A program made the translations under genes and the position numbers. A DNA stretch of 64,000 nt from Lactarius indigo (Eukaryota; Basidiomycota; Agaricomycetes; Russulales; Russulaceae), in NCBI GenBank assembly GCA_025766275.1, contig JAFKAC010000052.1:124001-188000 (forward strand). The letters run 5' to 3'. Positions 1-11,104 of the stretch are shown here, piece after piece. The notes under the pieces were generated by a model, which was not told the DNA's origin, did not search any database, and was given only the letters and a program-made list of their open reading frames with translations. The stretch's first letter is position 1. Each line of letters opens with the position of its first letter.

Positions 1-1334
1 TAGGTAGGAGTGTTGTCTAGTTGTCTAGAGGGGAGGGAACGAGCGTACGGGTAGAGCGGATTCGAACGGAGGGTATAAGGGTCGAGCCATCGATCGTGAA
101 CCCCGGTTAGTGAGGCACTGTAGGTGATGCTTGCCAGAAGCAGCGTAATAGAGAGAGAACCCCACATCAGGGGTAACAGACGGCTTGCCACTGAGGTGAG
201 TAGCGATAGATCTTTTGAAGACCGAGAGTAGAAGTTGTGTTGTTATGAGACGTTGAACGAACTGAGACCTTTGTTCTGGCGCGTGGTAGACAAACAAGTC
301 CATCGCCAACAGTTGTGGAATGCAAACGTTCACATGCTCGCCGAATATAATCAGCAACAAAGGCAGCACGAGCAAACCTCAGTGCCACTGTCAATGGTTA
401 CTGAGAAAAGGCATATCTCAGGCCCATTGCTTCTCATCGGCTTTGCTGACAGTTGCCAAGTGACCTACAGGACATTGTTGTATGAGCGCGAGAACGTCAC
501 GGTGGAAATAGAGTCGCCTTGGATGGGGCAGTCAGGCTGTCGCGGCGCGTTTGTTCTTGTCCGAAATACCGGCTGAACATGAAGGGGTTACTGTACTGTA
601 TTCTACTTTGAGTTTAACGCGCTGCGGACTGCGGCGGTAAATGGGCTGTGTGTCCACTTTGTATTGGACCCGGCCGCCGCATCAGAAAAAATAAAAACGT
701 GCTGACTGCGGTCTGTGGACATTCGCTTGGCATTTCAATGCGCTCCAATTTAATTGGTGCTGGCGCCACCCTAAAATCCTGATTTTACCACAGGAATGAA
801 TCTAATTTAAATTTTCTTTCCATTTCTGTACATGTGAGCCTCAGCACAGAGTCCCATCTCGCACTTCCCTACTACCCATAATCCACCCGTTCTTCGCCCT
901 CCTTCTCTTTTGATCTATGGTTCAGGCTGTACATTGCGAAAAACCCTCCGTAGCATCGGTCGGGGACGGGGTAGCGCACTCTAGTGCCCCTAGAAACCGT
1001 TATGTCGTTTCACTTTCCTGATGGGCCCTTTCCGAGGTCCTCACGCGAAGACCTCTCACGCGAAGACCTGACCGTCGACCACTCAGAACACTCGTAATTC
1101 TAATGGTCGAACACTTTTTTTTTTTCTAACTGAGCCGCGGCCGCGGTAAACTTAGACCCTATACTGTACTGCTTCGAGCGCGATGGTCGCCCTGGCAGTG
1201 ACAAGGAAGCTGTCACCGCGACATATATATCTACTACTGCATAGATAAACGTCCCTCCTCTTTGTCTTGTCTACGTACAGCAACGCCCCCTTCCCAGTCC
1301 CAGATTCAGGACGTTGCCCGTCTGAGCAGTTGCT
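1..1334. other. No recognised gene
   Basis: I recognise no conserved gene here. The longest plus-strand open frame (235-576, about 113 codons, opening with TTG rather than ATG) has no family signature I know and no clear intron structure. The 3' part (about 640-1330) is AT-rich in places and would include the promoter of the cytochrome b561 gene that starts at 1335. Copies of the short motif TACTGTACTGTA occur near 588 and 1156 and recur elsewhere in the window. Confidence 0.4.
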
Positions 1335-2224
1335 ATGTCTGGCCTTACAGAGTTTAAACACAATGCCAGTACCCATGGCTTACTTGCGGGCATCTCATTC
1401 TTGATCGTCCTTCCTGCCGGCGTCCTCATTGCTCGATATATGCGCACCTTCACCAACAGGTTAGCCTCGATGACTCCCTGTGGGGGTCGACATCGCCGAC
1501 GGCTAACGCATGCACGCGTTTTTTTGCAGGTGGTTTCATGCGCACTGGATCATCAACTTCTTAATCGGTTGCCCGCTCATTCTGGCAGCATGGATTATGG
1601 GAAGGAAGGCCCACGACTTTGGCCACGCATCGCTGACACCTCACGGGGTATGCCGACTCATCGCCGAGCGTTGACATAGACTCACCATCCCCTCCGCTGA
1701 ACAGAAACGTGGCTTATTTACCATCGGACTGTACATTGGGCAGCTGGTGCTAGGGATCGTTATCCACTATATTCGCATCCCGTTCCCCTCTCTCGGCCAC
1801 AGGCCGCCGCAAAACTTCCTCCATGCAGTGCAGGGTCTGGTTATCCTTGGACTGGCGAATTACCAGGTCCGTCTCTGCCGGTACTGCCTCCGCGAGAGTT
1901 TTGTTTCTTATCTGTGTTGGGAACTAGGTTTACGACGGCATATATCACAAGACGTCGTTCTTGGCTGCTGACGTCAGGCAGTCCGCGAAGCACACCTGGT
2001 TGGCGTTGCTCATCGTACGTTAGACCACGTAATCTTTGTGACACGGTTGCTGAAATTCATTCGTATAGATCTTCTGGACCCTATATGCCATCGGATTGAT
2101 CTTGTTGCGTCGTCAGTACGCACAAGAGCGAAGAGCCAGGCTGCAGAAAAATCAAGAAACTTTTAACATGCGCAGTGATATGCGCAGTGATTTGTACAGT
2201 CAGGATAAGTTATCGGCACCTTAA
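1335..2224 (+). CDS. Cytochrome b561-domain membrane protein
   Basis: Predicted transmembrane di-haem electron-transfer protein of the b561 family, which typically moves electrons from ascorbate or a quinol across a membrane. My exon model is 1335-1459, 1530-1647, 1705-1866, 1928-2014 and 2069-2224, all with GT-AG introns. It sums to 648 nt, or 215 aa. The four family histidines are all visible: STHGLLAG in helix 1, FHAHW in helix 2, TPHGKRG before helix 3 and FLHAVQG in helix 4. The RPPQNFLHA stretch is typical of fungal members. The C-terminus after the last helix is basic (LRRQYAQERRARLQK). There is no DOMON or cellobiose-dehydrogenase domain, so this is a stand-alone b561 unit. The N-terminus before helix 1 is short (about 13 residues), and a further upstream exon cannot be excluded. 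Family call is firm; substrate is unknown. Confidence 0.82.
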
Positions 2225-3509
2225 AGTGCCCGACGTTCGTTTGTCTCTTGTTAGATATCGTCTCGGTCTTCTCGAATGTACGATACGCCACATGTGATAT
2301 GAATGCGAAACTCCCGGAGACACCTACAGATAGAAAGGAACACCCCAGTCCGCCACAGGGCCATCATCTGCATCGACGCTCTGGACACTCCCGCTTAACA
2401 CCCACCAGATATGTCAATTTATGTTTACTAAAGCGCCGATGGTCAGGCCAAGAGGCTTCGTGGCAGTTCTGTTCTCCACATGCGGGAAAAAGTTGTTCTT
2501 CATCCACCCGAACGCCTACTATATGACATTGTCGCCGTCTATAGGGCACTGGCAAGAGTCGCAAGACGCAACTACGACTCGGAGGACAAAGACATTCTGC
2601 TTAACGGTAGCCCATTAGGAAAACGATATGGTACCAGGACTTCAGAACTCCAGCAATCAGCTTAATTCCCCTAGAAACCGCTAGTCACGCGGTCAGGTCT
2701 CGTTTTCTGGCAGACTAGATCATGCATCGATCATGGTTCGTTCGGAGACCGGAACACCGTAGGCACTCTTCCTCGAAGCCGGCCCACGTGTCTAAGTATC
2801 TACTACATAATACATATCGTCTAATCTCTTTATAGTGATGAAAAGAGGCGCACGCTGACGCCATTCAGTACTCGGTACTGAATTTTCGCCGACTCACAAC
2901 GATCTGCGCACCTTTTTCGTATTGTATAGATGGACTATAAAGCCCCCTCCCGAATCTTGCGACAAACTCAGACTATTGAGGCTTCGCTCGAACAATCACT
3001 CGCCCTTAATCTCATTCCTCACCTTCGGATCACTTTTATACAATACCGCGTCTCTATCATGGGTGAGGAAATCTCTCGTGTATCCTTGGCAGAGATGTTG
3101 AGTGCGCTTAAAGATCCCGTGCGCGACCTTAAAAATTATCTTCAATGCCACCCAACCGGCAATTTGACCCCGCAATTCTCGTGGGAGATGAGGCAAGATG
3201 GTCCTAAACATCAAGTCACCCATCTCGCCATTGCAAAGCGTGAGCTTTTTACAAGGCCTTTCAGACATTTCACGAACTGCACGCTGAGCTATCGTAGTCC
3301 GGGGTGTAGAGATTGGCCATGGAAGGGGCCTGAGAATTAGCATGGCGAAGAGGGAAGCCGCCACTATCGCTTTGCGACACCTAACGATCACAATGTAAGA
3401 CCTCTATGCGTCCCTATGATAGTGGAAGCTGTGCGAGCTACACGGGATGATGGGATTGAGTGCGAAGAGAGCGAAAAAAAATGAGGCGACTTGAAACACT
3501 ACTAGATTT
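2225..3509. other. Unassigned stretch with one anonymous ORF
   Basis: The best candidate is a plus-strand open frame at 2930-3340 (136 codons, ATG start). It has no family signature I recognise, and an equally long minus-strand frame covers the same bases (2996-3391), so neither is convincing. The sequence 2248-2700 contains short overlapping frames only. I cannot support a gene here. Confidence 0.35.
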
Positions 3510-5700
3510 ACTAGCTGCGGCCCATATAGTATCATCTACTATGAGTTCTTGGTAACTGCCATGGCACGCCTTATGTTTGAGATGAGGATATGTACGGAAT
3601 CCTGCGATCGGCCAAGGAGCACGATCATGTTTTCTTCTATTGAGTCTGTGTCTGAAATCAAGCCTTCTACTGGCAATATCGTGGGGTATTAGTGAACCCC
3701 AATTCCTGCCAACGGCGCGTGGTCTCGCTCAGCGGAGGTTCACATATCTGCATAATTTACGGCGTTGTTTTGTCGGGCCACAGCGACTCCCCATCATAGC
3801 CGCATCGAATTTCTGCACCTTAAAAAAGAGAGGAATGGCCACCAAGCAAACTAAAAGCGTGCATCATTAGTCCGGTCATTAGTACATCCCCACCACGTCC
3901 TGTCCCATCCGGTCAAGTATGTAAAGATAAACGGCATGCTGAAATATTCTGTCGAACCGTCGACAAAACAGTGGTGCACCGAGGTTCGACGTTCAACGTT
4001 CGATCTCGCAGGTGAATTCAAGGGAACACGAATGATAGACGTACTATCTGTCAAAGGATACCACTCTCTTTGAGAGCGTTCTGAAGAATCGTCTCCTTCA
4101 CGGTAACGAAGATCAGCCGAATGTTAGACGTGTCAGAGACACTTGTAATGCTGTGGTCGCTAACGGGTCAGCCGCGATTACTATAAATAATAAAAGCGTG
4201 TCTTACTGGGGATACACATTTAACCGTGCACGATTGGCCTGCATGAACCTCCAAAGAATGTGCTTGGCTCCCTTGTTAGCATCCGTACCCCCTGTATACT
4301 CTGGAAAGTAATTTTCCAGGGGAACCTGACGAAATAGATAGAAACATAGGCAATAGAAGGACACGAATCAAATGCGGCGTACTTTGGATAGTTTGACTTT
4401 GAACTCTTCCATTCCGGTCAAAAATAATATGATTGACGTCCGCAAGAACCACCGTGAGTTGATGACCGATTCAAAAAGGACAAAAGATTCTCCCAGTAGA
4501 TTCTGCGTTTGCTGTCAGAAACACCGAGGTGAGGGGAAGGCAATCACGTCCCTCTCCGTACTTGCCCTCCCGATTGTAGTCTGGGAGAGAAGTGCAAAAG
4601 ATGATAGATGTGATACCCTCGAAGGCGTAGATCCACTTCTTCCGCTCGCCCCTCTGACCAATGAAATGGTAAACATGAATTGATAGTTGACCCATGGGGA
4701 AACGAGTCTCCACAATTCCCACATGAGATGCCAAAGGTGCACGAAGTACGTCATTGGTCGATGGGATATACTCCTTTGAGGTGAGTCGATGTATATCGGG
4801 AAAGAAGCTATATGGGAGTGTCGTCACCATGACACCCAGAGTAGGAAGACTCGCCACGTGTTGTCCCGATTGTCATAGAGCGAAGCTCGATAGCAACTGG
4901 TGGGCAGATAAAAGGACTCACTATGCGGCATTATCAATCAATGGAAAGTATGCTGGACGATTGAACAACAAGACAATGATGTCGTCTGTCCATAGTTCCC
5001 GCACTGCATCAGCAAACCCGGGCCGGAAGAAGAACTCAGGACGGTTGGTATCCGTTGGATGATTCAAAATGCGCTCGCAGTTAGCCTGTAAGGGGATTAC
5101 GATGTGCAATGCAGAAAAAGTGGGGTAAGAGATGCGCACAATATTTGTGTGGGCCGTGGGTTTGAGTCCTGAATTCCGTAGGTCCTGTACAATACGACGG
5201 GAGGTCTCGAGGAGATAGCTCCAAATGGATAGACGGAAGTCGAGGAGTTCTTCACGAGAGTAACCAATTTGATGTACGACCTTCATTTGCCTGACTATGG
5301 CGGACATGTCGGAGTCGTTAAGTCCTAGTGCAACGACAAAATCGGTCCAATGGTCAATATTTGATACCAGATACAGACCCATCAATAATATTTTGCACGT
5401 TCGCTTGAAGACTCTGGAGTCTTCCTCGATCTGGCAGTCAATTTCATCAGAGTGAGCCTTCGCCAGTCTTGCAGCCCGTTTTTCAGCCACCCATTCCTTC
5501 CAGGCCAAAATCCCTAGTACCGTCTGAAGACCCCTGAGCTGGAAAGTCGAAAGGATGGGACGCAGGTTAGCAAGGGGGCGCAGGGTAAGAGTCGAGTCTA
5601 GCATATGGGGCACACGAGGGAAAGGTGCGAAAGGGCGCCTATAGGCACTGATCAAATTTAAACCAATCAGCCCTAACTTACTGTAAGGCACAATTCCGGG
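3510..5700. repeat. Dispersed direct repeat, copy A (about 2.1 kb)
   Basis: This stretch aligns by eye with 7810-9960 along its whole length, in the same orientation. It includes the G-alpha-like gene and about 500 nt beyond its stop codon. Shared landmarks include GTGGGGTATTAGTGA, GGTCTCGCTCAGCGGAGG and AAAAGCGTGCAT. The copies differ by many substitutions and small indels, so the duplication is not recent. Confidence 0.8.
4051..5691 (-). CDS. G-protein alpha-like protein lacking GTP-binding motifs, copy A
   Basis: The scaffold is that of a heterotrimeric G-protein alpha subunit. It keeps [16 protein letters not shown] near the N-terminus, [17 protein letters not shown] after the P-loop position, [32 protein letters not shown], the [13 protein letters not shown] exon and the C-terminal tail [16 protein letters not shown]. 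Visible exons (minus) are 5379 to about 5530-5691, 5140-5324, 4922-5085, about 4586-4807, 4383-4511, 4207-4325 and 4051-4159. Introns sit at positions expected for fungal G-alpha genes. The nucleotide-binding elements are gone: P-loop GxGESGKST reads GLNDSDMSA; the switch I Arg/Thr region reads [14 protein letters not shown] reads HFIGQ; NKxD reads TGME; and the TCAT box is absent. The position equivalent to copy B's start ATG is ACG here, so translation would have to begin upstream (ATG at 5691) or the copy is dead. One junction (near 4512-4590) does not close in frame. It may be a divergent regulator or a decayed gene. Confidence 0.6.
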
Positions 5701-6270
5701 CGTGTGCTATATCCTTGGCTATATCCCCCCAGTTGTGGGAATAAAAATCGTCTGAGTCATTGTCGATGGTCCCTTCTAGGGTTACGTCGAATGATGTCGC
5801 CTCGTGGTTCAAGTTGCGATACACGTCAAGGAGACTCGGAGTGGGCACAGCCTGAGTGGCAAGTATTCTGACTGACTGTCACGGCCCTACCCTTATCCTT
5901 GCCCTTATCATCACCCCCTTCTCTTACGATAGAGTCACTATCTCCTGAGAATATTCTCGCTCACTACCAAATGCATACCGGTGACACCCACCCATAGTAC
6001 TACATGTAGTCTTCTTTCCACCTAATCCTTACCCTCCACTCAACACCTCTCCTTTTCGACCCTCGACATGCAACCTGGTTAATTGCTCTCCTTCTGATGG
6101 GAAGGCACCGAGGGACAGCTGGTGAATGTCGCTGTTTCCCCTTCCGCTTAACCTTCTCGCTTGTACACAGCCATGCACACCGGCACGCACTGCTACTGTA
6201 AGTTCACTTTTTTCAGCTTTTCACCCTCTCTCGTACGCTATTAACCAAAAAATAAATTTTTCCTGTACCC
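5701..6270. other. Intergenic spacer
   Basis: No gene recognised. Around 5875-6060 the plus strand is rich in C and T runs, as is common upstream of fungal start sites. A short ORF begins at 6126 with a plausible intron (about 6199-6272), but it leads into the Sec18-like debris and probably is not a separate gene. Confidence 0.35.
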
Positions 6271-6279
6271 AGGTCAAAC

Positions 6280-7199
6280 GCCTACCAACCGTCGCGACCT
6301 GTTCAAAGTTGTCTCCTCCTATCATCGACCTGTCACGACCATCATCCCTGGGCTCATTGACCGCTCGTACTCAATGCGCCTTGGTAATGTGAGACCGGAG
6401 AGTGTAGGAGAAAGCCGCAATTGGACTGGCCTCACCCGGGCGCGCGATTTCGCGTTCAACCGACACATCGAGGTCGGTACGATGGCTGGCATCTCGGAAG
6501 ACGTCGAGGGTCAGCGTATCAACGCGGGCGACATTGCTTTGCCAATGCGCTGGAGGGGGTGCGACTCACGGTCGGCATTTCGGAGGTCGCCCATCTTCAC
6601 GGCCCAACCGGGACCTGCAGTGGACAAAGTCGAGCATCTCCGAGTCTTGGGTGAGCAGAATCCGAGGCGGATGCCAGTGAGCCTGCTACCATCCGAACGC
6701 CCTGGCGTGATGAACGAATTCTTACACAGATTGGGCACTTGTGACCACGCTTCTCCAATGCGGCACTGCAGACCCCACCGTGCTCATGGTGGAGCATCCC
6801 CCAAACGCAGCGCTCTCCTTGACTATTCAATACGCACGTCTGATCGCAGGCGTGCATTCACAGGGCCACCGCCTTCTTGTCATTGTGACGTCTTCGCTCC
6901 ACCCGATGCTGACTGACCCCAGCCTTACTCCGTCCGACGCTGAATTGCGCATGGTGCCCATCATGAACTTCTCTGCACTCGACCTTGCCCTCTCGCCCTC
7001 AAGGCTGTCGAACTCTTCTGCAGAACGTGCGATTTCGGGCACGCCGTGGGCATGCTGCGCCAGGTAGGCATTAGCACGGATGATGCCTGGCCGAGCATCC
7101 GCATCAAGCGCCTGTTTTGCGTCATTGAGATGGCACGGCAGGACCCCGAAACCGTCGTGAAGCTCCTGATGAGCTCGTTGATGGGCTTCGAGATGTGAG
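6280..7199 (+). pseudogene. SEC18: Sec18/NSF-like ATPase remnant
   Basis: Decayed fragment of the AAA ATPase NSF (Sec18), which disassembles SNARE complexes after membrane fusion. Recognisable pieces, in several frames, are TNRRDL (end of the D1 ATPase domain), ARDFAFNRHIEVGTMAGISEDVEGQR (the D1 C-terminal signature, only part needed for identification), LHGPTGTCSG where D2 should have a Walker A LHGPPGSGKT, RFSNAALQT, GHRLLVIVTSSLHPMLTD, IKRLFCVIEMARQDPE and the native-looking C-terminal end LMSSLMGFEM followed by a stop near 7197. Multiple frame changes separate these blocks, and both Walker motifs are lost or damaged. It cannot encode a working NSF. A second, differently deleted piece lies on the other strand at 15.6-16.4 kb. 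Confidence 0.75.
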
Positions 7200-7429
7200 G
7201 ATATGATACGATGGGACTGTGTGTATGTACAAGGATACTGCGTGGAGGGTCGAAAGAGACCCTGTGATACCGAGTTCATTTCGGCGGGGCGCAGGAAATG
7301 CTTAACTTCGGGAACAGCGCGCCGCCTCCCTCTTCTGGTCGGACAAGTCGCACGCGTCGCACCGTGACATCGCGAATGGACGGAACTTACAGTAATGTAC
7401 CTTGCTACCATGCAACTCCCCCTATTTCT

Positions 7430-7790
7430 ATTTCCTTCTCATCAGCTTTACCTGTCTCCCTTTTCTTCTCTCAGTGATATACTGATCACTCCAGACGCTT
7501 TCCTCTGAACTTAAAAGTTATGGCTCCGGAAGTTCTTTGGGAAAATTCGTGTCGTGGCCGATGAGATGGTTGTGTGTGGTGCTCGGATAATGGCCTGGCG
7601 CGACGCGATACCTAGCGAAGAACAGAAAGATAAGGAGACCGCTAGTAAGATCGCTGAGTCATGGCAGCGTTACTCCAGACCATGACTCGGCGAGTCACAG
7701 ATCTGCAAACCCCTGTTACTCCCTCTAGTCGACGTGCGTTTAGGTTGAGCCCTGCCTCAAGCAGCAACGTTTCGAGATGTGCCGCAATTG
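7430..7790 (-). pseudogene. YAE1: Yae1-like 3'-end remnant
   Basis: This stretch aligns with about 10370-10720 in the same orientation and matches the 3' end and downstream flank of the Yae1-like gene there. On the minus strand it reads HLETLLLEAGLNLNARRLEGV, against LQLEVLLLEAGLNTPWALSLW in the longer copy. The N-terminal Yae1 domain is absent, so this is a fragment only. Confidence 0.55.
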
Positions 7791-7809
7791 GAACCTTACT
7801 AGCTTCACT

Positions 7810-9960
7810 AGCCACGGGCTACCTGAGTCATATGTCATCTACTCTGAGAGCTCTAGGCAGCCAGATATTTATCACAACGGTCCCGGTCCTCAGGGTGAAC
7901 ACACCGGCACGATACTGCCATGACATGCCTTGAGATAAGGATATGTATAGAATCCCGCGATGGGCTGAGGAGCACGAAATACTCAGGTTTCTTCTACTGG
8001 GCTGTGTCTGGAATTATAGTATGCCTTCTACTGCCAATAGTGGGGTATTAGTGAGCCCCAATGGCGGCCAACGGCACCTGGTCTCGCTCAGCGGAGGTTC
8101 GCATGTCCACATAATTCACACCGTTTTTTTTCGGGCTATAGCGACCTCCCGTCATAGATGCGTCGAATTCTGCTCCTTAGAAAAAGGAGCAATCATGGCC
8201 CGCCGAACAAATCAAAAGCGTGCATAATTTGAATCAGTAAATCCCTGCCGCAATTCGTACTATCAGGTCAAACATCTAAAGACAAACGACATGTTGGAAT
8301 ATCCCATGAACCGTCAAAAAGCAGTGGTGCACTGAGGTTCAACGTTCAAAGTTCGGTTTTGCAAGCGAATTCAAAGGGAACGAACGGGTCTGTCAAAGGA
8401 TACCACTCCCTTTGAGTGAATTGTGAAGAATTGTTTCCTTCACAGCGATGAAGACCAGTCGAATGTTAGACGCGTCAAAGACATCTGTGACGCTGTGGTT
8501 GCTAGCAGGTCAGTCGTGACTATGGTGAATAAGGGAGGCATGTTTTACTGGGGGTACACATTTAACCGTGCACGATTGGCCCGCATGAATCGCCAAAGAA
8601 TGTACTTGGCCGCCTTGTTAGCATCCGTGCCCCCTGTAAACTCTGGGAAGTAGTCTTTCAGAGGAACCTGACGAAATGAATAGAAACCTAGGCAATAGAA
8701 GGACAGGAATCAAATGCAGCATACCTTGGATAGTTTGACTTTAAACTCTTCCATTCCGGTCAAAAATAGCATGATAGACGTCCGCAAGAACCACCGTGAG
8801 TTGGTGACTGATTCAAAAAAGACAAGAGATTTTGCTAGTAGATTCTGTAATCGCTGTCAGGTACGTCGAGGTGAGGGCAGGGTAACTACCCCCCTCTCCG
8901 TACTCGTCCCGCCGATCGTAGTCTGGGAGGGAAGTGCAAAAGATGATAGATGTGACATGCTCGAAGACGCGAATCCAATTCTTCCGTTCGCCCCTCTGAC
9001 CAATGACGCGACATAAACGAATTGATAGTTGACCCATGGGGAAAAAGGTCTCTGTAATTCCGCCATGAGGTGTCAAAGGCGCGCGAAGTACGTCATTGAT
9101 CGACGGGATATACTCCTTTGAGGTGAGTCGATGTACATCTGGAAAGAAGCTATGTGGGAGGATCATCAACATAACATCCAGAGTGGCACACGGAGACTCG
9201 CCATGTTGTCTCGGTTGTGATGAGTAATAGAGCGTAGCTCGATAACAACGAGGAGGCAGATAAAAGGACTCACTATGCGGCGTTATTAGCTAAAGGGAAG
9301 CATGTTGGACGATTAAACAACACGGTAATGATATCGTCTGTCCACAGTTCCTGCACCGCATCAGCGAACTCGGGTCGGAAAGAGAACTCGGGATGGTTGG
9401 TATCCGTGGGATGATTCAAAATGCGCTCGCAGTTAGCCTGTAAGAGGATCACAACGTGCGGCGCCGATAAGTGGGGTAAGAGATGCGCACTTTGTTTGTG
9501 TAAGTCGTGAGCTCGAGGCCCGAGTTTCGTAGGTCCTGTACAATACGACGGGAGATCTCGAGGAGATAGCTCCAAATGGAGGGACGAAATTCGAGGAGTT
9601 CTTCACGAGAGTAACCATTTTGATGTACGATCTTCATTTGCCTGACTATGGCGGACGTGTCGGGGTCATTAAGTCCTAGTTCAACAACAAAATCAGTCCA
9701 ACGGTCGATATTTAATACCAGATACAAACCCATCAGCAAGACATTGCGCGTTCGCTTGAAGAATTTGGCGTCCTCCTCGATCTGACGATCAATTTTATCA
9801 GAGCGGGCCTTTGCCCGTTTCGCCGCCAGCCAATCCTCCCAGGAGGCCAAAATCCCCAATACCATCCCGAGACCCCTAGTCGAACGGACCAAGAAGATTA
9901 GCAAGGGGATGCAAGTCTGAGGATAGCGAGTACACTCGTCACTTGGGCTCCGAGAGGGCC
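7810..9960. repeat. Dispersed direct repeat, copy B (about 2.1 kb)
   Basis: Partner of the repeat at 3510-5700, same orientation. It carries G-alpha-like copy B and its 3' flank. The two copies are separated by the Sec18 and Yae1 remnants, so the duplication was followed or accompanied by insertion of other gene pieces. Confidence 0.8.
8393..9865 (-). CDS. G-protein alpha-like protein lacking GTP-binding motifs, copy B
   Basis: Paralog of copy A with the same exon layout and the same loss of G-protein motifs. It starts [12 protein letters not shown] (ATG at 9863-9865; the frame is also open upstream to 10117). It continues [18 protein letters not shown], then an intron directly after LLMG, then [15 protein letters not shown] in place of GxGESGKSTIVKQMK. 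Later blocks are [61 protein letters not shown] (for DVGGQRSERKKW), [17 protein letters not shown] (for LFLNKxDxF), [13 protein letters not shown] and the end [16 protein letters not shown]. Length would be about 350 aa, as in normal G-alpha subunits. There is no N-terminal MGC/MGxxxS acylation motif. Exons agree in frame except at the junction near 8870-8940, where both copies carry the same apparent 8-nt excess. Either it is a GTP-independent G-alpha relative or both copies descend from a broken parent. Confidence 0.6.
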
Positions 9961-10571: not shown

Positions 10572-11104
10572 TCACCTCAACGCTGACCGATCTGCGTACT
10601 GCCAGTGCGAGCCAGGCGAGTCACGGTCCCGAAAGGAGCTCACCCCTGTTCGTACTTCCTCTAGCCAAAGACTCAAAGCCCATGGAGTGTTGAGCCCTGC
10701 CTCAAGTAACAACACCTCGAGCTGTAGCATGCAGAGTCCGTCACTGGCGGTGGACAGCCTTTGTCCCTGCACCTGCACCTGGTTTTCACCACACAGGTCG
10801 TCTGCGTCGACCTCCTGCAGCGCCATAGCCTCCCCATCGGGCGAGACGAGATCCGCAAAGTGCACCACCACTTGCCGGTCCCGTACTCGCACCTGCGTCT
10901 GTTCCAGCTTGGCAGCCGGTTCAGGGGGGAGTTGGTCAGGTGGAGGAGAAGCGGGAACGAGCCCTCTGAGGACGCCGAGCTCGTGTCCGCGCGGGGCGCC
11001 GGTGAGCTCAAAGCCCGCGTCGAAGCCCTCTTGCAGTGAGACTTCTTTGCCGGTATGCCGTCGTGGTTCGGCCTGCGTGTACACGGCGATGATTCACCCA
11101 TCAT
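10572..11104 (-). pseudogene. YAE1: Yae1-like protein, probably frameshifted near its N-terminus
   Basis: Yae1 works with Lto1 as an adaptor that recruits the ABC protein Rli1 for Fe-S cluster insertion. The diagnostic glycine-spaced block is present: GKEVSLQEGFDAGFELTG followed by RGHELGVLRGL. After it comes a long acidic/hydrophobic tail ending LQLEVLLLEAGL. The tail frame is open to 10572. Upstream, however, the expected NxDGITAGKE is split over two frames: NHDGI in one and TGKEVSL in the other. No ATG lies in the main frame before a stop. I therefore read it as a damaged copy, although an unrecognised small exon could rescue it. A shorter 3' remnant sits at 7430-7790. Confidence 0.5.

What the first reader, a model, noticed from the sequence alone, without database searches (positions are those of the whole stretch)
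3510..9960. A duplicated pair of G-alpha-like genes without any GTP-binding motif
Seen: both copies keep the G-alpha scaffold and C-terminal receptor tail ([14 protein letters not shown] and [14 protein letters not shown]) and nearly all exon frames. The P-loop Lys and Thr are replaced in both ([18 protein letters not shown] for GxGESGKST), as are the switch I Arg/Thr, DVGG, NKxD and TCAT. Known: each element is needed for GTP binding or hydrolysis. Inference: if expressed, these are nucleotide-independent G-alpha relatives that might bind receptors or G-beta/gamma, a little like degenerate plant XLG proteins. All five motifs eroded in both copies while the fold persists is unusual.
Basis: partly seen in the sequence, partly recalled or inferred. 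Interest (0 to 1): 0.75.

Follow-up and report, generated by a model that had tools for sequence, protein, structure and literature searches.

The report
Mushroom G-alpha family without GTP pocket
Milk-cap and brittlegill mushrooms carry an old family of G-protein alpha subunits that has lost its GTP-binding motifs yet is still kept by natural selection, so a classic on/off switch seems to have become something that works without switching.

Summary
The window comes from a Lactarius indigo assembly. Two tandem minus-strand genes (5604-4051, 386 aa; 9865-8393, 357 aa), modelled with six GT-AG introns and no stop, read as full-length G-alpha proteins without the five guanine-nucleotide motifs or the N-terminal lipidation site. 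They do not behave as pseudogenes: both alleles of both genes are open; dN/dS between the copies is 0.47 (canonical paralogues 0.22); exons show 0 indels against 18 in introns and 3' flanks. Annotated relatives with the same losses come from 14 named species of Lactarius, Lactifluus and Russula and form one clade (100/100). Of 150 homologs listed, 36 keep at most 5 of 12 key residues, 114 keep at least 10, none lie between. P-loop Lys, switch-I Arg, DVGG Asp and NKxD Lys are kept in 0 of 30 full-length members, 71% of other canonical-invariant sites are. L. indigo has at least four such loci. Three short contigs of relatives look like spliced transcripts. Best reading: a pseudo-G-alpha forming nucleotide-independent complexes with G-beta-gamma and/or receptors. 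Motif loss and selection are shown; lack of nucleotide is inferred; partners are untested; one splice junction is weak. Plants, Dictyostelium and Naegleria have atypical G-alphas; my searches listed no natural fungal case.

The parts
5379..5604 (-). copy 1 exon 1 (start codon at 5604; extended N-terminus MLDSTLTL..., alpha-N helix, beta-1 to LLMG)
   Evidence: N-terminus shared with P0001, P0004, P0005, P0008, P0009, P0014
5325..5378 (-). copy 1 intron 1, phase 1, inside the P-loop position (GTCTGT...CACTAG)
   Evidence: same phase and place in the canonical gene P0022
5140..5324 (-). copy 1 exon 2; begins with degenerate P-loop LNDSDMSA, then helix alpha-1
4922..5085 (-). copy 1 exon 3; helical domain
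4548..4807 (-). copy 1 exon 4; degenerate switch I (RAPLASH), switch II ([12 protein letters not shown]) and switch III
   Evidence: Pfam G-alpha on an ORF over this exon E 8.8e-23
4490..4547 (-). copy 1 intron 4 with shifted sites (GTGATT...TGGGAG), phase 1; weakest splice call
   Evidence: same ends in the other haplotype; residues as in P0001/P0003/P0004/P0008, but P0009 (NCBI model of the other allele) is annotated differently
4383..4489 (-). copy 1 exon 5; NKxD position reads TGME
4207..4325 (-). copy 1 exon 6; helix alpha-4 / strand beta-6
4051..4150 (-). copy 1 exon 7; TCAT position reads TSVS; helix alpha-5, C-terminus ESGIL, stop
9730..9865 (-). copy 2 exon 1 (start [12 protein letters not shown]; no MGxxC lipidation site)
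9491..9675 (-). copy 2 exon 2; degenerate P-loop LNDPDTSA
9274..9437 (-). copy 2 exon 3; helical domain
8890..9149 (-). copy 2 exon 4; degenerate switch I (RAPLTPH) and switch II ([12 protein letters not shown])
   Evidence: Pfam G-alpha E 2.2e-22 on an ORF over this exon
8835..8889 (-). copy 2 intron 4 with shifted sites (GTAGTT...TACTAG), phase 1
   Evidence: GTATTT in the other haplotype; P0017 (NCBI model of the other allele, partial) is annotated differently
8725..8834 (-). copy 2 exon 5; NKxD position reads TGME
8549..8667 (-). copy 2 exon 6; helix alpha-4 / strand beta-6
8393..8492 (-). copy 2 exon 7; TCAT position reads TDVF; helix alpha-5, C-terminus GSGIL, stop

Best explanation
The two genes are members of a pseudo-GTPase branch of the heterotrimeric G-alpha family, so far seen only in Russulaceae. 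SHOWN: members from Lactarius, Lactifluus and Russula form one clade inside canonical G-alphas and share the loss of the guanine-nucleotide contacts, while the rest of the domain stays under selection, also between the two haplotypes of this genome. INFERRED with good support: the duplication and the loss came before these genera separated; the protein folds as a G-alpha and cannot bind or hydrolyse GTP in the usual way, so it cannot cycle. INFERRED, moderate: it works as a fixed, nucleotide-independent G-alpha. It keeps a switch-II helix and an alpha-5 tail close to those of the canonical paralogue and so occupies G-beta-gamma and/or receptors without releasing them on GTP. It would thus buffer or compete with canonical G-alpha (a natural dominant-negative or scaffold), perhaps at a different place in the cell, because the N-terminal lipid site is gone.
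For: Clade 100/100 on a tree with the motif columns left out (32 degenerate of 62 rows). Motif loss all-or-none: 36 of 150 proteins keep at most 5 of 12 residues, 114 keep at least 10. P-loop Lys, switch-I Arg, DVGG Asp and first Gly, and NKxD Lys kept in 0 of 30 full-length members; 171 other canonical-invariant sites 71% kept against 29.5% of 21 motif sites, p 8e-7. Codon-ML dN/dS among three L. indigo copies 0.47, 0.45, 0.48, below 1 at p 4.2e-5, 1.6e-6, 2.1e-5. Both alleles of both copies open; pooled allelic differences 9 nonsynonymous and 14 synonymous, p 1e-4. Exon indels 0 in 1009 aligned bases against 18 in 851 of introns and 3' flank. Tree length inside the clade 8.7 changes per site (38 rows), yet 42 sites are at least 95% conserved in 30 members, some as derived residues. 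In 19 Lactarius-type members the switch-II helix face is kept 82%, alpha-5 80%, alpha-4/beta-6 91%, against 70% for all canonical-invariant sites. Predicted folds match G-alpha. Precedents: a P-loop G42R G-alpha favours G-beta-gamma in any nucleotide state (abstract of PMC3285607); plant XLG binds G-beta-gamma and RGS nucleotide-independently (passages of PMC8584482); dominant-negative Gi1 constructs carry S47N, G203A, E245A, A326S (passage of PMC10172140).
Against: No transcript or protein of L. indigo was seen. The intron-4 junction is weak: copy 1 needs a GAG acceptor, the third paralogue only opens with a 34-nt intron, and NCBI's own models of the other L. indigo alleles (P0009, P0017) as well as P0002, P0005 and P0007 use other junctions there. 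Protein divergence is about tenfold that of the canonical gene over the same species pair (1.33 against 0.134), so constraint is loose. In 9 Russula-type members the switch-II face (58%) and alpha-5 (52%) are kept no better than the background (58%). One partial member dropped from the 30-row count, P0093, keeps the Asp of DVGG. Allelic dN/dS alone is not significant for copy 1 (p 0.13) or the third copy (p 0.22); for copy 2 it is (p 0.0044). AlphaFold was run on alignments that included canonical members, so a G-alpha fold was to be expected.
Confidence: 0.6

Rival explanations
1. The fold was kept but co-opted: the protein no longer touches G-beta-gamma or G-protein-coupled receptors and serves as a stable binding module for other partners.
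For: 17 sites carry a derived residue in at least 80% of 30 members (H83R, Y111H and I130V in 30 of 30), which suggests a new constraint; the lipid site and switch III are lost; Russula-type members keep the alpha-2 face and alpha-5 no better than average.
Against: In Lactarius-type members the alpha-2 face, alpha-5 and alpha-4/beta-6 are kept better than average; K213, W214, F218 and E219 are kept in 83-93% of 30.
Confidence: 0.27
2. Slowly decaying pseudogenes: relics of a G-alpha duplication that happen still to be open.
For: Fast evolution; loss of the ancestral intron-4 donor, weak replacement sites and disagreeing annotations at that junction; irregular gene models in relatives (for example P0001 and P0004, with repeated N-termini).
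Against: dN/dS well below 1 after the motif loss; in 2000 neutral simulations the fraction with an equal or lower ratio was 0.0005, and 1.6% had no stop; 0 exon indels; annotated full-length members in several species and open alleles on both haplotypes; 8.7 changes per site of tree length with 42 conserved sites.
Confidence: 0.07
3. The protein still binds a nucleotide, or another phosphate ligand, through a rebuilt pocket, and so still switches.
For: The P-loop segment of both window copies keeps its exact length; its first Gly is kept in 73% and the Gln of DVGGQ in 87% of 30 members. The pocket of the models was not inspected.
Against: P-loop Lys, both inner P-loop Gly, switch-I Arg, DVGG Asp and NKxD Lys are kept in 0 of 30; the replacing P-loop residues differ between Lactarius (such as LNDxDTSA) and Russula (such as SKSExAAS).
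Confidence: 0.06

Closest known systems
Canonical G-alpha of the same genome (P0022, L. indigo)
   Same: Closest canonical paralogue compared (58-60% identity over 343 columns); same domain over its whole length; same P-loop intron phase; nearly the same C-terminal tail.
   Different: P0022 keeps GSGESGKST, RARAKTT, DVGGQ, NKID, TQAT and MGNC; both window copies have none of these intact.
Plant extra-large G proteins (XLG)
   Same: Atypical G-alpha with deviating catalytic motifs; reported to bind G-beta-gamma and RGS independently of nucleotide (passages and section 1.2 of PMC8584482).
   Different: XLGs have an extensive N-terminal domain with a Cys-rich motif and nuclear signals; these are 357-386 aa with no such domain. 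The fungal clade lies inside fungal G-alphas; no plant sequence was put in the tree.
Atypical G-alphas of Dictyostelium and Naegleria
   Same: Deviation of catalytic motifs, some without the N-terminal tethering residues, as stated in the review (section 1.2 of PMC8584482).
   Different: No sequences of these were compared here; different lineages.
P-loop mutant G-alpha(G42R) and engineered dominant-negative G-alpha-i1
   Same: Changes at the same places (P-loop, switch II, TCAT Ala); G42R favours G-beta-gamma in any nucleotide state (abstract of PMC3285607; construct list in PMC10172140).
   Different: Laboratory mutants with few changes that still hydrolyse or bind GTP to some degree by those same texts; here five motifs are lost in nature and the loss is shared across species.

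Membership tests
Heterotrimeric G-alpha (PF00503), by descent and fold | Profile match over the whole domain and placement inside the G-alpha tree | tested here: met
   NCBI model of the other allele of copy 1 (P0009): 269 bits against cut-off 48.8, profile 2-333 of 333; trees place the clade inside Russulales canonical G-alphas; listed Foldseek and VIA hits are G-alphas
Heterotrimeric G-alpha, functional GTPase | G1-G5 motifs (GxGESGKST, RxxxT, DxGGQ, NKxD, TCAT) | tested here: not met
   P-loop Lys, switch-I Arg, DVGG Asp and NKxD Lys kept in 0 of 30 full-length members
Heterotrimeric G-alpha, functional GTPase | N-terminal MGxxC lipidation site | tested here: not met
   Both window copies lack it; residues 2 and 4 kept in 30% on average of 30 members
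Heterotrimeric G-alpha, functional GTPase | Binding to G-beta-gamma and receptors | not testable with these tools
   Only conservation of the faces could be counted
Pseudo-GTPase | GTPase fold with catalytic motifs lost and the loss shared among relatives under selection | tested here: met
Pseudo-GTPase | No nucleotide binding measured | not testable with these tools
   needs purified protein
Plant XLG | Long N-terminal extension with Cys-rich motif and nuclear signals | tested here: not met
   386 and 357 aa, G-alpha domain nearly from the start; feature named in PMC8584482
Pseudogene | Disabled frame, dN/dS near 1, no open orthologs | tested here: not met
   the intron-4 junction leaves a reservation

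The most novel reading that the evidence does not exclude
Before Lactarius, Lactifluus and Russula split, their ancestor (Russulaceae are mostly ectomycorrhizal; recalled) turned a duplicated G-alpha into a permanently nucleotide-free subunit. The expanded family, at least four loci in L. indigo, is a layer of constitutive competitors that hold G-beta-gamma or pheromone/nutrient receptors and set the gain of canonical G-protein signalling. It would be a natural, conserved counterpart of the dominant-negative G-alphas built for structural biology, and the first such family known in fungi.
Probability: 0.3. Interest if true: 0.78.

Novelty: new variant of a known kind. Interest (0 to 1): 0.64.

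Why it matters
G-alpha is the textbook molecular switch, and GTP is taken to be indispensable to it. Plants showed that a G-alpha relative can work with little or no nucleotide binding; here a fungal lineage appears to have lost all five motifs together and then kept and multiplied the protein. It is a natural experiment on which parts of a G-alpha matter when switching is removed, with the canonical paralogue in the same genome as control. It makes a clear question testable: what does a G-alpha do for a cell when it cannot hold GTP? It also warns that automatic names ('G-protein alpha subunit') count these as working GTPases in mushroom genomes.

Tried and rejected
Rejected: a shared frameshift after DYNR/DYDR in both copies. 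The ancestral acceptor with either nearby GT donor is out of frame (read by eye), but shifted GT-AG sites are open and give residues seen in some relatives' annotations. Other annotations differ there (P0002, P0005, P0007, P0009, P0017), so this is the best, not the only, reading. My first copy-2 model ended exon 4 one base short and gave false stops; corrected. The search query and the rate test used the older junction; rates were redone with nearly the same result (codon ML 0.51, then 0.47).

Rejected: the P-loop residues as a splicing artefact. The P-loop intron lies in the canonical gene too, and the replaced segment has exactly the canonical length.

Rejected: chance or assembly error. 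The other haplotype and other species agree.

Led nowhere: DNA-level dN/dS across species (I had no Lactarius DNA outside this genome); Pfam on seven ORFs between and beside the copies (two weak matches, both below cut-off). Paper searches, of which some aimed at fungi: no listed title or abstract start describes natural fungal G-alphas without motifs. Searches list only 20 of 954, 10 of 65 and 15 of 126 papers; subscription papers and preprints are not held. PMC8417538 (term search only) has one 'G-protein' passage, about receptors.

Rows dropped before counts: eight partial proteins (P0014, P0017, P0037, P0093, P0123, P0141, P0142, P0145) of 38 degenerate rows, of which P0093 keeps the DVGG Asp; from the 30 canonical rows of the tree set, six were left out of the canonical reference there (P0085 and P0143, two diverged Lactarius proteins, and four non-Russulales or unnamed: P0046, P0061, P0107, P0136). 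Six partial rows were left out. Homolog lists show only the best 120 of 1029, 1731 and 742 matches, so absence of degenerate members outside Russulaceae is not shown.


Full report
What is there. The window belongs to a 90.3-Mb genome of 291 contigs (window = C240:124001-188000). The lengths of three of its contigs (443492, 2397822, 349145) equal those given for the contigs of NCBI's Lactarius indigo proteins P0009/P0010/P0017, P0022 and P0053, so I take it to be the L. indigo assembly, with C238 as the sister haplotype of C240. Two tandem genes on the minus strand, 5604-4051 and 9865-8393, modelled with seven exons and six GT-AG introns each, encode 386 and 357 residues without internal stops. 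tblastn with four G-alpha proteins finds no other G-alpha locus in the 64 kb.

The motifs. The replaced P-loop has the canonical length and is split by a phase-1 intron at the same Gly as in the canonical gene.

The junction problem. Read with the ancestral intron-4 acceptor, both copies would be frameshifted. The canonical gene has this intron in phase 0 between KNQ and NRM, and that donor is gone. With sites shifted into the flanking exons the frame is open: GTGATT...TGGGAG in copy 1 and GTAGTT...TACTAG in copy 2. The resulting residues (GEGQS, GEGAKS) match annotated proteins of L. deliciosus, L. sanguifluus (two) and L. akahatsu (GEGQS) and are close to GEGPKS/GEGPES in P0006 and P0014; but P0002, P0005, P0007 and NCBI's own models of the other L. 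indigo alleles (P0009, P0017) use other junctions. The GAG acceptor of copy 1 is weak, and this remains the least certain part. A fourth L. indigo locus of the family (C179/C233) keeps a phase-0 intron 4 and is open in both haplotypes up to the end of the alignment.

Not pseudogenes. Between the copies, 1009 aligned exon bases carry no indel, against 18 indels in 851 bases of introns and 3' flank (p 9e-7; introns alone 4 in 390, p 0.006, older junction). NG86 gives dS 0.345, dN 0.114, ratio 0.33 (bootstrap 0.23-0.47; 336 codons); in 2000 neutral simulations the fraction at or below the observed ratio was 0.0005, and 1.6% had no stop. Codon ML gives 0.47 for copies 1-2 (355 codons) and 0.45 and 0.48 against the third copy, below 1 at p 4.2e-5, 1.6e-6 and 2.1e-5, and 0.22 for two canonical L. 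indigo paralogues. The sister-haplotype alleles are open, with 6 nonsynonymous and 6 synonymous differences in copy 1 and 3 and 8 in copy 2; pooled p 1e-4, copy 2 alone p 0.0044, but copy 1 alone (p 0.13) and the third copy (p 0.22) are not significant. Because the motif loss is shared by both copies and by other species, this constraint was measured after the loss.

A family. Three homolog searches list 150 different proteins. Scored at 12 nucleotide-contact residues, 36 of 150 keep at most 5 and 114 keep at least 10; none lie between. Of the 36, 28 are named and come from 14 species: eight Lactarius, Lactifluus subvellereus and five Russula. A careful tree of 62 rows with the motif columns left out puts 32 of 32 such rows in one clade with 100/100 support, within Russulales G-alphas; a quick tree of 68 rows (38 degenerate) agrees. 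Copy 1 groups with P0009 and then one L. deliciosus and one L. sanguifluus protein (98/80), copy 2 with L. hatsudake, L. deliciosus and L. hengduanensis proteins (98/95). Judged by equal contig lengths, L. deliciosus carries a member of each of these two groups on one contig, so the pair is older than these species. L. indigo has at least four loci: the two here, a third about 45 kb away on the same contig (P0010 ortholog) and the fourth on C179/C233.

What changed and what stayed. In 30 full-length members, 21 canonical-invariant motif sites are kept at 29.5% and 171 other canonical-invariant sites at 71% (p 8e-7). P-loop Lys47, Arg181, Asp203, Gly205 and Lys273 (P0022 numbering) are kept in none of the 30; the partial P0093, not among the 30, keeps the Asp. 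The lipidation site (30%) and switch III (28%) are also lost. The Gln of DVGGQ is kept in 87%. The helix after it, which in animal G-alphas faces G-beta (recalled), keeps K213, W214, F218 and E219 in 83-93%. In 19 Lactarius-type members this face (82%), alpha-5 (80%) and alpha-4/beta-6 (91%) exceed the 70% background; in 9 Russula-type members they hardly stand out (58, 52 and 67% against 58%). Tree length inside the clade is 8.7 changes per site, and the path between L. indigo copy 1 and an R. dissimulans member is 1.33 against 0.134 for the canonical gene: loose but real constraint.

Expression. No L. indigo transcript was available. P0012 (360 aa on a 1321-nt contig), P0149 (333 aa, 1156 nt, six member sequences) and P0093 (261 aa, 936 nt) leave 238, 154 and 150 nt for introns, while the window copies carry 393 and 399 nt of introns, 285 nt of it in copy 1 introns 3-6. 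These contigs are best read as spliced transcripts of relatives; intronless retrocopies would look the same. The other five unnamed members (P0015, P0032, P0088, P0140, P0142) do not decide the point.

Mechanism. Without Lys47, Asp203, Lys273 and the P-loop glycines, ordinary GTP binding is not expected (established knowledge of G-alpha). A P-loop mutant G-alpha favours G-beta-gamma in any nucleotide state (abstract of PMC3285607); plant XLG2 is thought to be nucleotide-free in vivo yet functional, and XLGs bind G-beta-gamma and RGS (passages of PMC8584482); dominant-negative Gi1 constructs carry changes at the P-loop, switch II and TCAT (passage of PMC10172140). By analogy I propose a nucleotide-independent partner of G-beta-gamma and/or receptors that buffers canonical signalling. 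The genome has G-gamma matches (3 places) and STE3-type receptor matches (11, on one contig); G-beta was not searched. Binding itself is untested.

Novelty. The review read here (section 1.2 and passages) names Dictyostelium, Naegleria and plants as having G-alphas with deviating catalytic motifs. Ten paper searches listed no natural fungal case; three of them showed only part of their hits, and the library holds open-licence papers only. I file it as a new variant of a known kind: a fungal pseudo-G-alpha family with all five motifs lost.

Noticed in passing
G000 loci L014, L018, L019, L024/L025, L027/L028, L029/L030, L031: A second atypical G-alpha group in the same genome keeps a P-loop of the type GQ(S/A/V)ESGKST and NKxD, but switch II reads DVGG(A/S/T)R or DVGSSR, so the catalytic Gln is missing. 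Gene models are rough (distant queries); not compared with other fungi.
   Followed up: partly
L022 and L023 (C179:561k / C233:106k): A fourth degenerate G-alpha locus, not among the L. indigo proteins listed, open in both haplotypes up to the end of the alignment; the usual stop after SGIL seems lost, so the C-terminus may be longer.
   Followed up: partly
L010 and L011 (C240:82k / C238:376k): The third degenerate copy (P0010) opens only with a 34-nt intron 4, unusually short; that junction is doubtful.
   Followed up: partly
P0126 (L. vividus), P0085 (L. hengduanensis): Otherwise canonical Lactarius G-alphas with single motif changes (GPSESGKST, RASVKTT, DVGGL; GSCKSGKST, RAHAKTT): possible early steps of a separate degeneration.
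   Followed up: no
window 3500-4050 and 7850-8390: Similarity of the two copies continues some 450-550 bp past the stop codons at about 80% with many indels, so the duplicated unit is larger than the genes.
   Followed up: no
window 4051-5604 against 8393-9865: 115 of 146 coding differences between the copies are transitions; a mutation bias such as repeat-induced mutation was not tested.
   Followed up: no
window 1326-2220 (+): By eye a spliced membrane-protein gene resembling the cytochrome b561 type (recalled); no Pfam match on the one raw ORF tried.
   Followed up: no
window 10572-11093 (-): An open frame with a weak Yae1_N match (E 1e-5, below the curated cut-off).
   Followed up: no
C238 and C240 of G000: The assembly carries both haplotypes of this region (97.8-98.4% identical around the two copies), which inflates gene counts.
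   Followed up: yes
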